Below, one piece after another: positions 28,940 through 31,688 of a stretch of DNA of 40,423 nucleotides (positions within the stretch are counted from its first letter, which is position 1; each line of letters opens with the position of its first letter). Source of the stretch: Bacteroidota bacterium. GTDB lineage: Bacteria; Bacteroidota; Bacteroidia; Bacteroidales; VadinHA17. Position numbers and translations under genes: made by a program. The DNA lies in contig DSCJ01000091.1 of assembly GCA_011049175.1 (NCBI GenBank), positions 1 to 40,423 on the forward strand. Reading direction: 5' to 3'. The notes below the pieces were generated by a model. The model ran no database searches, was not told where the DNA came from, and saw nothing but the letters and a program-made list of their open reading frames with translations.

Positions 28940-30211
28940 TCAAACGATCATTCCGGCACATACGGTAACAAAGGTTCCTTCGTCGATCAGGATCACACTG
29001 CCGGTAATGCGGTTGGTACGGTATGAATCGTAGAAAAGGGGCTGCGTGGTCCGTATCCTGATCCGGCCAATATCGTTCAACCCGATACGTTTGTCCTCAA
29101 TATCTTTCTCCAGGGTATTGATATTCACCTTAAACTGCACCTCCTTTATCACACACCTTGCCTCTTTTGTGGTATGTCTCAGGATATATTTCCCGTTCAG
29201 CGCCATGGGTTTTTCATTCAGCCAGCAAATCATCATGTCAATGTCCTGACCTACCCTGGGGGGATTGTTCTCTCCCACAATCATATCGCCCCGGCTGATG
29301 TCAATTTCGTCCTTCAGCCGGAGGGCCACCGACTGGGGAGCATAGGCCGCCTCAAGGCTTTTCCCCATGGTATCGATCGATTCAATAACTGTAGGTATGT
29401 TCGACGGCAGCACCCTCACCCTCTCTCCCGGTTTAAGCACCCCGGCTGCAATGCGTCCCGCATAACTACGGTAATCCGGAAAATCGTTGCTTTGAGGCCT
29501 GATCACATACTGTACAGGGAACCGGATATCGTGGTGATTGTAATCATTTGCAATATATACGTTTTCAAGAAGATGCATCAGTGTGGGACCGGAATACCAG
29601 GGGGTATTCTCCGACCTTTCCACTACATTATCCCCCAGCTTGGCCGATATGGGAACAAACCGCACATCGTGAATATCGAGCCGCGAAGACATGGCTGTGA
29701 AATCCTTGCATATGGTCCGGAACACTTCCTCGCTGAAATCCACCAGGTCCATTTTGTTAACACAGATTACCACGTGGGGTATCTGCAACAAAGAAGCGAT
29801 ATAGGCATGCCGGATGGTTTGCTCGAGAATTCCGTTGCGTGCATCGACCAGGATGATTGCCAGATTGGCTGTGGAAGCCCCGGTCACCATGTTACGGGTA
29901 TACTGAACATGTCCGGGTGTATCGGCAATAATGAATTTACGCTTCGGTGTGGCGAAATACCGGTATGCCACATCAATGGTGATGCCCTGCTCCCGTTCGG
30001 CCCGCAAGCCATCAGTCAGGAGGGCCAGGTTCACTTCCTCGGCTCCTGTCCCGAAACTGGCTCTTTCAATAGCTTCCAGCTGATCTTCAAAAATGGCCTT
30101 GCTGTCAAACAGCAGTCTGCCGATCAGGGTGCTTTTTCCGTCGTCAACACTCCCCGCTGTGGTGAAGCGGAGAAGTTCCATATTGAGGTAGCCGTTGGTG
30201 TCTGTGTTCAT
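28940..30211 (-). CDS. cysN: Sulfate adenylyltransferase large subunit (GTPase)
   Basis: About 423 residues; start chosen at MNTDTNGYLNMELLRFTTAG. GTP-binding motifs are GSVDDGKST (20-28), DTPGHVQY, and NKMD, followed by two beta-barrel domains as in EF-Tu relatives. With CysD it makes adenosine 5'-phosphosulfate from sulfate and ATP, driven by GTP hydrolysis. No APS kinase domain is fused to the C-terminus. It would normally follow cysD directly, but here a four-helix-bundle gene and its repeats separate the two by about 570 nt. Confidence 0.95.
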   Translation of the reverse strand: MNTDTNGYLNMELLRFTTAGSVDDGKSTLIGRLLFDSKAIFEDQLEAIERASFGTGAEEVNLALLTDGLRAEREQGITIDVAYRYFATPKRKFIIADTPGHVQYTRNMVTGASTANLAIILVDARNGILEQTIRHAYIASLLQIPHVVICVNKMDLVDFSEEVFRTICKDFTAMSSRLDIHDVRFVPISAKLGDNVVERSENTPWYSGPTLMHLLENVYIANDYNHHDIRFPVQYVIRPQSNDFPDYRSYAGRIAAGVLKPGERVRVLPSNIPTVIESIDTMGKSLEAAYAPQSVALRLKDEIDISRGDMIVGENNPPRVGQDIDMMICWLNEKPMALNGKYILRHTTKEARCVIKEVQFKVNINTLEKDIEDKRIGLNDIGRIRIRTTQPLFYDSYRTNRITGSVILIDEGTFVTVCAGMIV

Positions 30212-30258
30212 ATTTTGTAAATGCAATTAGTGTTGATGGGTCTGTCTGGATAAGATAA

Positions 30259-30293
30259 GGTCATACAATGGTCATACGATGGTTATTCGATGG
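30259..30293 (+). repeat. Left 11-nt repeat array flanking the four-helix-bundle gene
   Basis: Three 11-nt units in tandem: GGTCATACAAT (30259-30269), GGTCATACGAT (30270-30280) and GGTTATTCGAT (30281-30291), followed by GG. Read inward, its last 23 nt match the right array in inverted orientation at 17 of 23 positions. Confidence 0.75.
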
Positions 30294-30297
30294 ATTA

Positions 30298-30708
30298 TTA
30301 AATAATTTCCACATCCGGATCGGGTTCATGCAGATAACCACCGGTATGGCTACCAACAGAATAAATATAGTTGTTCAGTTTCACACTCAGGTTTTTGATA
30401 TCCATTGAATACTTATCAAAATCTTTCTGGTCAATAAGTGATCTATTAAAAGCTTTCTGAATCCATGTTTGTGTTTCAAACAACGAACCTCTTGAATAAT
30501 AAAGAAAGAGCTTGTTTTCCTTGTAATAGTACCTGCCAAATCCTTCACTGATATTGGCCGCCACTGAATCTGCTGACCTGACGAGTTGCTTTCCGACCGT
30601 ATCTCTTTCAAAATTCTCCATTCTTTTAGCTACAGCCCAGATATCCTCACCCATCGTCATGGCCAACTTGTATACTTCCATATCCTCAAGACCAAGTTTT
30701 TTCTTCAT
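30298..30708 (-). CDS. Four-helix-bundle protein (S23/rRNA intervening-sequence type)
   Basis: About 136 residues, all helical. Family signatures are LEDMEVYKLAMTMGEDIW, the VGKQLVRSADSVAANISEGFGRYYY turn, and FLYYSRGSLFETQTW. ATG 30708 is preferred over a TTG at 30717. The family includes proteins first seen inside 23S rRNA intervening sequences and is structurally related to the Avd accessory protein of diversity-generating retroelements; a pentameric nucleic-acid-binding barrel is known for some. No reverse transcriptase or rRNA is present here. It is inserted between cysD and cysN, with short inverted arrays on both sides, and looks like a small mobile-like module. Function unknown. Confidence 0.9.
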   Translation of the reverse strand: MKKKLGLEDMEVYKLAMTMGEDIWAVAKRMENFERDTVGKQLVRSADSVAANISEGFGRYYYKENKLFLYYSRGSLFETQTWIQKAFNRSLIDQKDFDKYSMDIKNLSVKLNNYIYSVGSHTGGYLHEPDPDVEII

Positions 30709-30742
30709 AATCAACAATTTAACAAATCACCTATAATTATCT

Positions 30743-30775
30743 GACCACTACATAACAACCGTATGACAACCGTTT
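30743..30775 (-). repeat. Right 11-nt repeat array flanking the four-helix-bundle gene
   Basis: On the plus strand three 11-nt units: GACCACTACAT (30743-30753), AACAACCGTAT (30754-30764) and GACAACCGTTT (30765-30775). The minus-strand copy at 30767-30745 pairs with the left array as an imperfect inverted repeat (17 of 23). The array ends 4 nt from the cysD stop codon. Confidence 0.7.
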
Positions 30776-30779
30776 TCCC

Positions 30780-31688
30780 CTAAAAATACCCCTCCTTCTT
30801 CCTGTCCTCCATGGCTGCTTCCGAGCGTTTGTCATCATACCGCCCTCCGCGTTCCGTTGTGCGGGTGGCAGCCACTTCCAGGATAATATCTTTCACACTG
30901 TTGGCCCTGGAAAGGGTAAGTCCCGTACAGGTAATATCGCCGATGGTCCGGCAGCGTACATCACAAACTTCGGCTTTCTCACCGGGTTTCATTTTCATAA
31001 AAGGGGCAACGGCCAGCCACACTCCATCTCTGTTGAATACTTCCCTTTTATGGGTAAAATAGAGGCTGGGTATTTCAATGTTTTCCATCAGGATATATTG
31101 CCACACATCCATCTCTGTCCAGTTACTCAGGGGGAATACCCGGAAATGTTCGCCCATACGCTTCTTTCCGTTAAAAACATTCCATAGTTCGGGACGCTGG
31201 TTTTTGGGATCCCACTGTCCGAATTCATCCCGGTGAGAAAAGAACCGTTCTTTGGCCCGGGCTTTTTCCTCGTCCCGGCGTCCGCCACCCATGGCCGCAT
31301 CGAATTTGAATTCTTCGATAGCATCCAGCAGGGTTACCGTTTGCAATACGTTCCGGCTGGCATTGTACCCGGTTTCCTCTACCACCTTTCCGGCATCGAT
31401 GGTATCCTGTACGTAACGCACAATGCATTTCCCTCCCGTTTTTTCCATCAGTTCATCCCTGAACTGCAGGGTTTCTGGAAAATTATGACCGGTATCGATG
31501 TGCAACAGCGGAAAAGGCACCAGGGCGGGCCAGAAAGCTTTCCGGGCCAGGTGATACATCACGATCGAATCCTTCCCTCCGGAAAAAAGCAGGACAGGCC
31601 TCTCAAACTGTGCCGCCACCTCGCGAATCACATAAATCGACTCAGCTTCCAGCTCAAGCAGGTGGGTCAGGCGATATGTTTCCATCAT
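30780..31688 (-). CDS. cysD: Sulfate adenylyltransferase small subunit
   Basis: A 302-residue PP-loop enzyme. The pyrophosphate loop is LFSGGKDSIVMYHLARKAF; HIDTGHNFPE follows, and the C-terminus RGGRYDDKRSEAAMEDRKKEGYF is the CysD signature that contacts CysN. It transfers AMP to sulfate to form APS. Two ATGs lie in tandem at 31688 and 31685. The downstream gene of the pair, cysN, is offset by the inserted four-helix-bundle module. No APS reductase or APS kinase gene is in the window, so assimilation versus sulfation cannot be decided. Confidence 0.95.
   Translation of the reverse strand: MMETYRLTHLLELEAESIYVIREVAAQFERPVLLFSGGKDSIVMYHLARKAFWPALVPFPLLHIDTGHNFPETLQFRDELMEKTGGKCIVRYVQDTIDAGKVVEETGYNASRNVLQTVTLLDAIEEFKFDAAMGGGRRDEEKARAKERFFSHRDEFGQWDPKNQRPELWNVFNGKKRMGEHFRVFPLSNWTEMDVWQYILMENIEIPSLYFTHKREVFNRDGVWLAVAPFMKMKPGEKAEVCDVRCRTIGDITCTGLTLSRANSVKDIILEVAATRTTERGGRYDDKRSEAAMEDRKKEGYF

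What the first reader, a model, noticed from the sequence alone, without database searches (positions are those of the whole stretch)
30227..30782. Four-helix-bundle gene flanked by inverted 11-nt arrays, inserted between cysD and cysN
cysD and cysN are normally adjacent. Here an S23-type four-helix-bundle gene lies between them. On its left are three 11-nt units (30259-30291) and on its right three more (30743-30775), and the two sides match as an imperfect inverted repeat (17 of 23). The right array ends 4 nt from the cysD stop. This has the look of a compact mobile or retro-type module with structured ends, but no transposase or reverse transcriptase is present. Family members are related to Avd of diversity-generating retroelements and to rRNA intervening-sequence proteins.
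Basis: partly seen in the sequence, partly recalled or inferred. Interest (0 to 1): 0.65.

Follow-up and report, generated by a model that had tools for sequence, protein, structure and literature searches.

The report
Mobile helix-bundle gene with repeat arms
A small gene wedged between two sulfur-metabolism genes looks like a worn copy of a widespread half-kilobase mobile element that carries one helix-bundle protein gene between two mirror-image arrays of short repeats, and it may give the many unexplained 'four helix bundle' genes of bacteria a testable role.

Summary
The gene and the 11-nt units are there, and the finding is bigger than the window. The gene is PF05635 (S23/IVP), in the order cysD-ivp-cysN, one strand. 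In the window alone the inverted pairing is no better than chance. Across relatives it is strong: 117 of 214 IVP genes have matching inverted arrays in their flanks, against 3 of 126 size-matched control genes. At different sites, arm similarity climbs with IVP identity; 21 of 21 pairs of at least 80% identity (five groups) share their unit (Mantel 0 of 500), so arms and gene travel together. One genus shows filled, gene-less and empty versions of two operon gaps. Its short copies have a 13-bp terminal repeat, and 8 of 25 scored copies have 8-bp target duplications. Copies near the window's kind are co-directional with the upstream gene in 75 of 76 cases (control 72%). This is a mobile element, probably moved by a transposase in trans. 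'Retro-type' is not supported: no reverse transcriptase in the window's genome. What the arms do is inferred. No paper listed by nine literature searches describes it.

The parts
30298..30705 (-). IVP / S23 four-helix-bundle gene (135 aa from ATG at 30705; a TTG at 30717 would give 139 aa)
   Evidence: PF05635 96.4 bits, TIGR02436 90.6 bits; AlphaFold model pLDDT 91, four helices; Foldseek to 2gsc, 2rld, Avd 4dwl
30743..30775 (-). 5' array (upstream of the gene on the sense strand): three degenerate 11-nt units, core GTCATAC/GTTATGT
   Evidence: core shared with the subclade
30259..30291 (-). 3' array (downstream of the gene on the sense strand): three 11-nt units with core ATGAC, the reverse complement of the 5' core
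   Evidence: TRF score 43; pairing with the 5' array not above chance by itself
30227..30779 (-). whole element as inserted in the cysD-cysN gap (limits inferred from the gene borders; no terminal repeat or target duplication recognised here)
   Evidence: gaps without the gene in other genera
30780..31688 (-). cysD, sulfate adenylyltransferase small subunit (host operon gene upstream)
   Evidence: TIGR02039 424 bits
28940..30226 (-). cysN, sulfate adenylyltransferase large subunit (host operon gene downstream)
   Evidence: TIGR02034 556 bits

Best explanation
The locus is a partly worn copy of an 'IVP element': a mobile element of about 0.5 kb with one gene (S23/IVP, PF05635) between two arrays of short tandem units (mostly 7-11 nt). 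The downstream array is the reverse complement of the upstream one. It sits in the gap of a co-directional operon, here cysD-cysN. Shown for the family: arms and gene move together between sites, filled and empty sites exist, gene-less derivatives keep the arms, and in one lineage the ends have a 13-bp terminal inverted repeat with 8-bp target duplications, so movement there is DNA transposition, presumably by an enzyme supplied in trans (not identified). Inferred: that the window copy came in the same way; that (1) the IVP protein (its Xanthomonas relative is described as a pentamer) recognises its own arms, because unit sequence and protein diverge together; (2) gene-bearing copies persist mainly where the operon transcript expresses the gene; (3) in that transcript the arms can pair into a stem around the gene, as the ends of the rRNA intervening sequence do, so the insertion may be cut out or insulated without harming its neighbours.
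For: Matched inverted arrays: 117 of 214 IVP genes score at least 21 against 3 of 126 control genes; 74 of 101 family loci exceed the 95% mispaired null, direct orientation 16 of 101. In 793 kb, periodic inverted pairs and IVP genes coincide 6 of 6. Arm similarity against IVP identity at different sites: medians 7, 7, 9, 11, 16, 28 for under 30, 30-40, 40-50, 50-60, 60-80 and over 80%; Mantel 0 of 500. Empty, filled and gene-less states of two operon gaps in one genus. TIR GTAACTAWTCAGT; TSD at least 7 of 8 in 8 of 25 copies against 0.33% of 600 mismatched pairs; 188 TIR-like sites in G033 against 12 reversed controls. Window subclade: cysD-cysN copy L263 and a second copy L217 in records of one MAG share the upstream array and most of the gene, 88% DNA identity over 455 nt. 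Co-orientation: upstream 75/76, both neighbours 61/68 (control 72% and 53%); gene-less copies show no bias (14 of 22 upstream).
Against: The window's own arms pair no better than shuffles (134 of 500), and neither do those of L047 and L049 at the same junction (43 and 158 of 200). 97 of 214 IVP genes lack arms at the score of 21, and several have direct, not inverted, arrays (L300, L307, L310). In the L217/L263 pair the downstream flanks are not shared. No terminal repeat or target duplication was recognised outside one lineage; in the other groups aligned I saw no sequence shared between sites outside the arms. 17 of the 25 scored copies lack a clear target duplication. No transposase with that TIR was identified. 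Mismatches in the arms are not consistently G.U rather than A.C (223:170, 18:22, 81:93), so selection on an RNA stem is not shown. The window element is single copy. The tree cannot place the window protein.
Confidence: 0.62

Rival explanations
1. An RNA-level intervening sequence, like the one in 23S rRNA: the arms pair in the operon mRNA, RNase III cuts the stem, and the element leaves the two host messages intact. The arms are kept by selection on the RNA stem, and spread is a side effect.
For: Same protein family and complementary ends as the Coxiella rRNA IVS, whose S23 ORF is preceded by tandem heptamers (PMC4990558, passages read). Strong co-orientation with the upstream gene. At diverged pairs with homologous neighbours, arms match their own partner better than the other copy's (47 pairs, 17.5 against 14.5, p 3e-5, pairs not independent). 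Duplexes below all 200 shuffles in L137, L139, L089, L107, L268 and below 199 of 200 in L020.
Against: No consistent G.U excess. Gene-less copies with terminal repeats and target duplications show DNA movement. L047, L049 and the window pair no better than shuffles. No match to any Rfam family at gathering level in 17 loci, which is weak evidence. RNase III cutting was not tested.
Confidence: 0.2
2. An ordinary MITE (IS-derived non-autonomous element) that happens to carry an IVP gene as a passenger; the arms are by-products of slippage inside it.
For: One lineage has TIR, 8-bp TSD, 39 to 188 TIR-like sites per genome in four genomes, and gene-less copies.
Against: Arms and gene stay together across phyla and across element groups in which I saw no such TIR; unit sequence tracks the protein, not the site; G000 has TIR counts at control level, and G018 too although it holds at least one such copy (L358), and both carry IVP elements.
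Confidence: 0.1
3. A retro-type or DGR-like element that moves by reverse transcription with a reverse transcriptase in trans.
For: Avd-like fold; no own transposase.
Against: PF00078 in 14 of 59 family genomes, none in G000 or in the IVP-rich G033, G023, G037, G030, G045 (21, 19, 13, 11, 10 IVP matches; some of these genomes are only 64-91% complete), though the IVP-rich G012, G014 and G017 (13, 13, 10) do have one. Terminal repeats with 8-bp duplications in the lineage where ends could be read.
Confidence: 0.04
4. The arrays are independent short tandem repeats (STRR-like) that accumulate in gaps; the inverted pairing with IVP genes is coincidence.
For: Solo arrays are common: 89 TRF arrays in 793 kb against 6 IVP genes; the window pair is within chance.
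Against: Mispaired-flank nulls, control genes, the 6-of-6 coincidence and the Mantel test.
Confidence: 0.04

Closest known systems
Intervening sequences (IVS) of bacterial 16S/23S rRNA genes with S23 ORF (Coxiella: PMC4990558, passages read)
   Same: S23/IVP gene inside a short element with complementary ends; tandem heptamers before the ORF in Coxiella; sporadic and held to be horizontally spread.
   Different: Here the elements lie between protein-coding genes; the ends are arrays whose units differ by IVP lineage; one lineage has TIR and TSD.
MITEs, including BrickBuilt of Porphyromonas gingivalis, which holds a minisatellite (PMC4596501, passages read)
   Same: Short, non-autonomous; TIR and TSD in one lineage; tandem repeats inside.
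   Different: Codes for a conserved protein; inverted paired arrays rather than one internal array; in other groups no separate TIR was seen.
STRR-type heptamer repeats: GGGAATC of Xanthomonas and GGGGA(T/C)T of Nostoc (PMC4692102, passages read); TAACTGA of Beggiatoaceae (PMC4679880, passages read). The name STRR and its older literature are recalled.
   Same: Heptamer arrays in intergenic regions; 70 and 75 convergent pairs reported in two Xanthomonas genomes.
   Different: The two texts have 0 occurrences of the S23 and helix-bundle terms searched; here the pairs enclose such a gene.
Avd of diversity-generating retroelements
   Same: Same fold (4dwl, 8ub7).
   Different: 9% identity; no reverse transcriptase found in the window's genome.

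Membership tests
PF05635 / TIGR02436 four helix bundle (S23/IVP) | profile match above curated cut-off and fold | tested here: met
   96.4 against 33.8 bits; 90.6 against 24; 2gsc TM 0.79/0.92
rRNA intervening sequence (IVS) | S23 ORF within the element | tested here: met
rRNA intervening sequence (IVS) | complementary ends | tested here: inconclusive
   met for 117 of 214 relatives; the window itself within chance
rRNA intervening sequence (IVS) | insertion inside an rRNA gene | tested here: not met
   lies between cysD and cysN
rRNA intervening sequence (IVS) | excision by RNase III | not testable with these tools
   needs RNA
MITE | terminal inverted repeats and fixed-length target duplications | tested here: inconclusive
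   met in the L034 lineage; not recognised in the window or in the groups
MITE | no own transposase, internally deleted copies | tested here: inconclusive
   gene-less copies with both ends in the L034 lineage; the window element is single copy
Diversity-generating retroelement | reverse transcriptase | tested here: not met
   PF00078: 0 in G000, 98% complete
Diversity-generating retroelement | template and variable repeats with adenine mutagenesis | not tested
   no search made

The most novel reading that the evidence does not exclude
IVP elements are an undescribed class of mobile element found in many bacterial phyla. The IVP pentamer specifically recognises its own mirror-image tandem arms, protein and unit co-evolve, the arms are kept complementary by concerted change, and the elements live in operon gaps by borrowing the host transcript. 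Stand-alone 'four helix bundle' genes and many unexplained inverted heptamer arrays would then be the same thing.
Probability: 0.45. Interest if true: 0.85.

Novelty: new variant of a known kind. Interest (0 to 1): 0.74.

Why it matters
Stand-alone S23/IVP genes occur in 116 of 148 genomes sampled across the phylum, and S23 proteins are said to have no known function (PMC4990558). If they are the protein part of a mobile element whose arms they recognise, many 'four helix bundle protein' annotations, the rRNA intervening sequences and a share of the puzzling short-repeat arrays become one system. The recognition is directly testable, because each protein comes with its own candidate target sequence.

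Tried and rejected
11 nt as one turn of A-form RNA: dropped. Where a 5' arm period is clear (80 of 144 elements) it is mostly 7 or 8 (26 and 25); 9 in nine, 11 in five, 12 in two, 13 in one and 14 in twelve.

RNA selection through G.U excess: family 223 G.U to 170 A.C, phylum 18:22, named 81:93. Inconsistent, so not used as support.

Reverse transcriptase in trans: disfavoured.

Monophyly of the three cysD-cysN copies: the tree puts L263 with L217, a copy at another site of the same MAG (support 100/98), but leaves the window unresolved on a long branch. I make no claim on one or several insertions at cysD-cysN.

L202 came up as a same-site partner, but its neighbours match CysD and CysN at only 31-32%; I do not count it as the same junction.

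Rows dropped; 127 distinct IVP ORFs, 101 kept (full length, both flanks, no N); 214 loci kept from four sets after removing duplicates and short flanks (family 101, phylum 30, named 66 of 80, handles 17 of 30); the 126 controls come from contigs some of which hold IVP genes, and the IVP genes were not taken out of the controls; only the 144 of 214 with arm score of at least 18; the 125 of these with 900 nt on each side. G028 at the epimerase site (L329), G041 at the kinase site (L338) and G012 gave no readable junction; 30 loci scanned, 25 had both ends at up to 4 mismatches each; several of the 25 are a second subtype without this TIR. Loci from searches are the best-scoring ones (one search kept 80 of 117), so rates are not population estimates. 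Neighbour orientation rests on a longest-ORF rule, not on annotation. Outputs were cut in the middle; what I say by eye rests on the parts shown.

Literature: 9 of 10 searches; none of the papers listed joins S23/IVP genes with inverted repeat arrays, but several searches matched far more papers than were listed, and the library lacks most subscription journals and bioRxiv.

Full report
WHAT IS IN THE WINDOW. The region reads, on the minus strand, cysD (30780-31688), an S23/IVP gene (30298-30705) and cysN (28940-30226). The gene matches PF05635 at 96.4 bits and TIGR02436 at 90.6 bits. A model from 21 aligned sequences (pLDDT 91, four helices) matches 2gsc (XCC0516, TM 0.79/0.92), 2rld (BT_0352) and, more weakly, Avd 4dwl (TM 0.71/0.87, 9% identity, E 0.02). 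Their mutual pairing, taken alone, is not beyond chance: local score 13 against a mispaired 95% level of 19 or 18, and 134 of 500 dinucleotide shuffles pair as well. The element is single copy in its genome, which holds six PF05635 matches, four over the cut-off.

THE SAME JUNCTION IN RELATIVES. CysD was found in 34 of 59 genomes of the family; junctions were read for 29 loci. Three hold an IVP gene in the cysD-cysN gap by tblastn: the window, L047 and L049, all with 11-nt units; L047 and L049 have about ten or more upstream. The sister genome (L038, CysD 99%) has a long 11-nt array there and no tblastn hit to the gene, only what looks by eye like a remnant. The other 25 gaps are 29-393 nt and show no hit; some hold other short repeats. 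The three IVP proteins are 55-68% identical to each other.

A GENERAL ANATOMY. PF05635 occurs in 54 of 59 genomes of the family and 116 of 148 across the phylum. Reading the flanks showed the same design with a different unit at many loci: a short tandem array before the gene and its reverse complement after it. Tests: 250 nt upstream aligned to the reverse complement of 250 nt downstream gives median 24 against 12 when flanks are mispaired between loci; 74 of 101 exceed the 95% null, 16 of 101 in direct orientation. Phylum set: 18 of 30, direct 2 of 30. All sets: 117 of 214 score at least 21, against 3 of 126 control genes of 95-190 aa, from which IVP genes were not removed. In 793 kb of contiguous DNA from five genomes (400 kb taken blind from G003, the rest from contigs chosen because they hold an IVP gene) there were 18 inverted matches of at least 21. 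The 6 in which the left arm repeats with period identity of 0.55 or more all enclosed an IVP gene, and all 6 IVP genes there had one; the other 12 were aperiodic and had none (the periodicity cut was set after seeing the list). Unpaired tandem arrays are common without the gene (89 TRF arrays).

ARMS AND GENE TRAVEL TOGETHER. Among pairs of elements whose neighbours show no homology, arm similarity rises with IVP identity: median 7 below 40%, 9 at 40-50, 11 at 50-60, 16 at 60-80 and 28 above 80%, where 21 of 21 pairs (five groups) score at least 20. With at least 900 nt of flank on each side (125 elements, 5940 pairs) the picture is the same, Spearman 0.29; no permutation of 500 reached it (highest 0.07). 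At equal identity, same-site and different-site pairs look alike (29.5 and 28 above 80%; 19 and 16 at 60-80). At pairs with homologous neighbours on both sides and below 70% identity, arms match their own partner better than the other copy's (17.5 against 14.5, 47 pairs, p 3e-5, pairs not independent); above 70% there is no difference (22 against 21.5, 39 pairs). So arms diverge with the protein and tend to stay matched to each other.

THE WINDOW'S SUBCLADE. A scan with five subclade proteins returned 80 loci (best 80 of 117) titled as Bacteroidota, Ignavibacteria, Cloacimonadota, Marinimicrobia, KSB1, Planctomycetota, Deltaproteobacteria, Verrucomicrobia, Cyanobacteria, Acidobacteria and others. 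Many share the core GTCAT before and ATGAC after the gene in units of 7 to 11 nt (listing partly cut): both in 28 of 68, flipped in 2 of 68, against 0 of 86 other IVP genes; 3 of 11 in the family's own members of the subclade. In one MAG (CSMAG_490) the cysD-cysN copy and a copy elsewhere share the upstream array and most of the gene at 88% over 455 nt, but not the downstream flank, and are sisters in the tree (100/98). Junctions recognised by eye include gyrB-gyrA and a site before uvrC.

EMPTY SITES AND ENDS. In genus g12, the gap between a glycoside-hydrolase-like and a kinase-like gene (my reading) is filled in G021 (570 nt), empty in G028 and G033 (16 nt), and holds arms without the gene in G045 (273 nt). 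The gap between an epimerase-like and a carboxyltransferase-like gene is filled in G037 and G033 (606 and 626 nt), has arms but no IVP hit in G021 (575 nt), a 101-nt remnant in G045 and is empty in G041 (29 nt). IVP copies at the two sites are about 92% identical; a third site carries a close copy (L097). A DNA search with this element gave matches in 50 of 117 family genomes, many of them distant matches to the coding part or to single arms; in g12, g8, g3, g9 and g14 they include gene-less copies made of the two ends. Aligned copies show ends GTAACTAATCAGT...ACTGAATAGTTAC in one subtype. Of 25 copies with both ends found, 8 have at least 7 of 8 matching flanking bases (5 perfect), against 0.33% of 600 mismatched pairs; perfect repeats of other lengths were two 3-mers only. 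TIR-like sites number 188, 87, 49 and 39 in G033, G012, G008 and G021, against 12, 5, 8 and 10 reversed controls, but 4 in G018 and 2 in G000, against 7 and 3. In the other groups aligned I saw no sequence shared between sites outside the arms, hence no separate TIR. The transposase is not identified; an IS66-like source is only recalled from GTAA ends and 8-bp duplications.

ORIENTATION. In the named subclade the upstream neighbour is on the same strand in 75 of 76 and both neighbours in 61 of 68; phylum set 26/27 and 23/27; family 76/90 and 56/85. The downstream neighbour alone is less telling in the family set (69/93). Control triples: 72% and 53% of 530. Gene-less copies show no such bias (14 of 22 upstream, 15 of 25 downstream). 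I read this as selection for expressing the gene from the operon, not as a property of insertion.

HOW IT MOST LIKELY WORKS. Shown: mobility of gene plus arms, by DNA transposition in one lineage. Inferred: the protein recognises its arms; the pentamer is taken from the literature on the family (PMC4990558, passages). The stem in the mRNA is possible and strong in several copies tested (L137, L139, L089, L107, L268: 0 of 200 shuffles as good; L020 1; but L047 43 and L049 158 of 200), and G.U counts give no consistent sign of RNA selection. The upstream arm is G-rich and C-poor and the downstream arm the reverse, so each arm should pair poorly with itself.

NOVELTY. The closest known things are rRNA intervening sequences and MITEs. 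The element lies outside rRNA, which fails a defining test for the former, and only one lineage meets the TIR/TSD test for the latter. I call it a new variant of a known kind. None of the papers listed by nine literature searches describes it; PMC4692102 reports convergent heptamer pairs in Xanthomonas, with 0 occurrences of the S23 and helix-bundle terms searched.

Noticed in passing
L001 (G000:C120): A second IVP locus of the window's genome has 7-nt arms: GGTTTAT repeated before the gene, AATAAAC-type repeats after it.
   Followed up: partly
L297-L326, genome G209 (Mucilaginibacter terrigena 17JY9-4): One isolate gives 15 PF05635 matches (two are pieces of one gene), many with a unit of their own; L320 has a long GGGTCATT array upstream and none downstream.
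   Followed up: partly
L300, L307, L310: Some IVP genes have arrays in direct rather than inverted orientation on the two sides (direct 38, 31, 41 against inverted 15, 23, 19).
   Followed up: no
L239, L250: By eye the arms look flipped relative to the gene (ATGAC upstream, GTCAT downstream), as if the gene had inverted between its arms.
   Followed up: no
L039, L042: cysD-cysN gaps without the gene carry a different palindrome-like sequence, GTAAGGACAAGGCATGCCTTGTCTCTAC, between short repeats.
   Followed up: no
L272, downstream arm: The last arm unit runs into the start codon of the next gene, read by eye as uvrC.
   Followed up: no
L136, L139, L145: Arms of this group contain extra small hairpin-like pieces (for example GCTCCTTGCAGTCGC) between 11-nt units.
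   Followed up: no
[quoted passage not shown]
   Followed up: no
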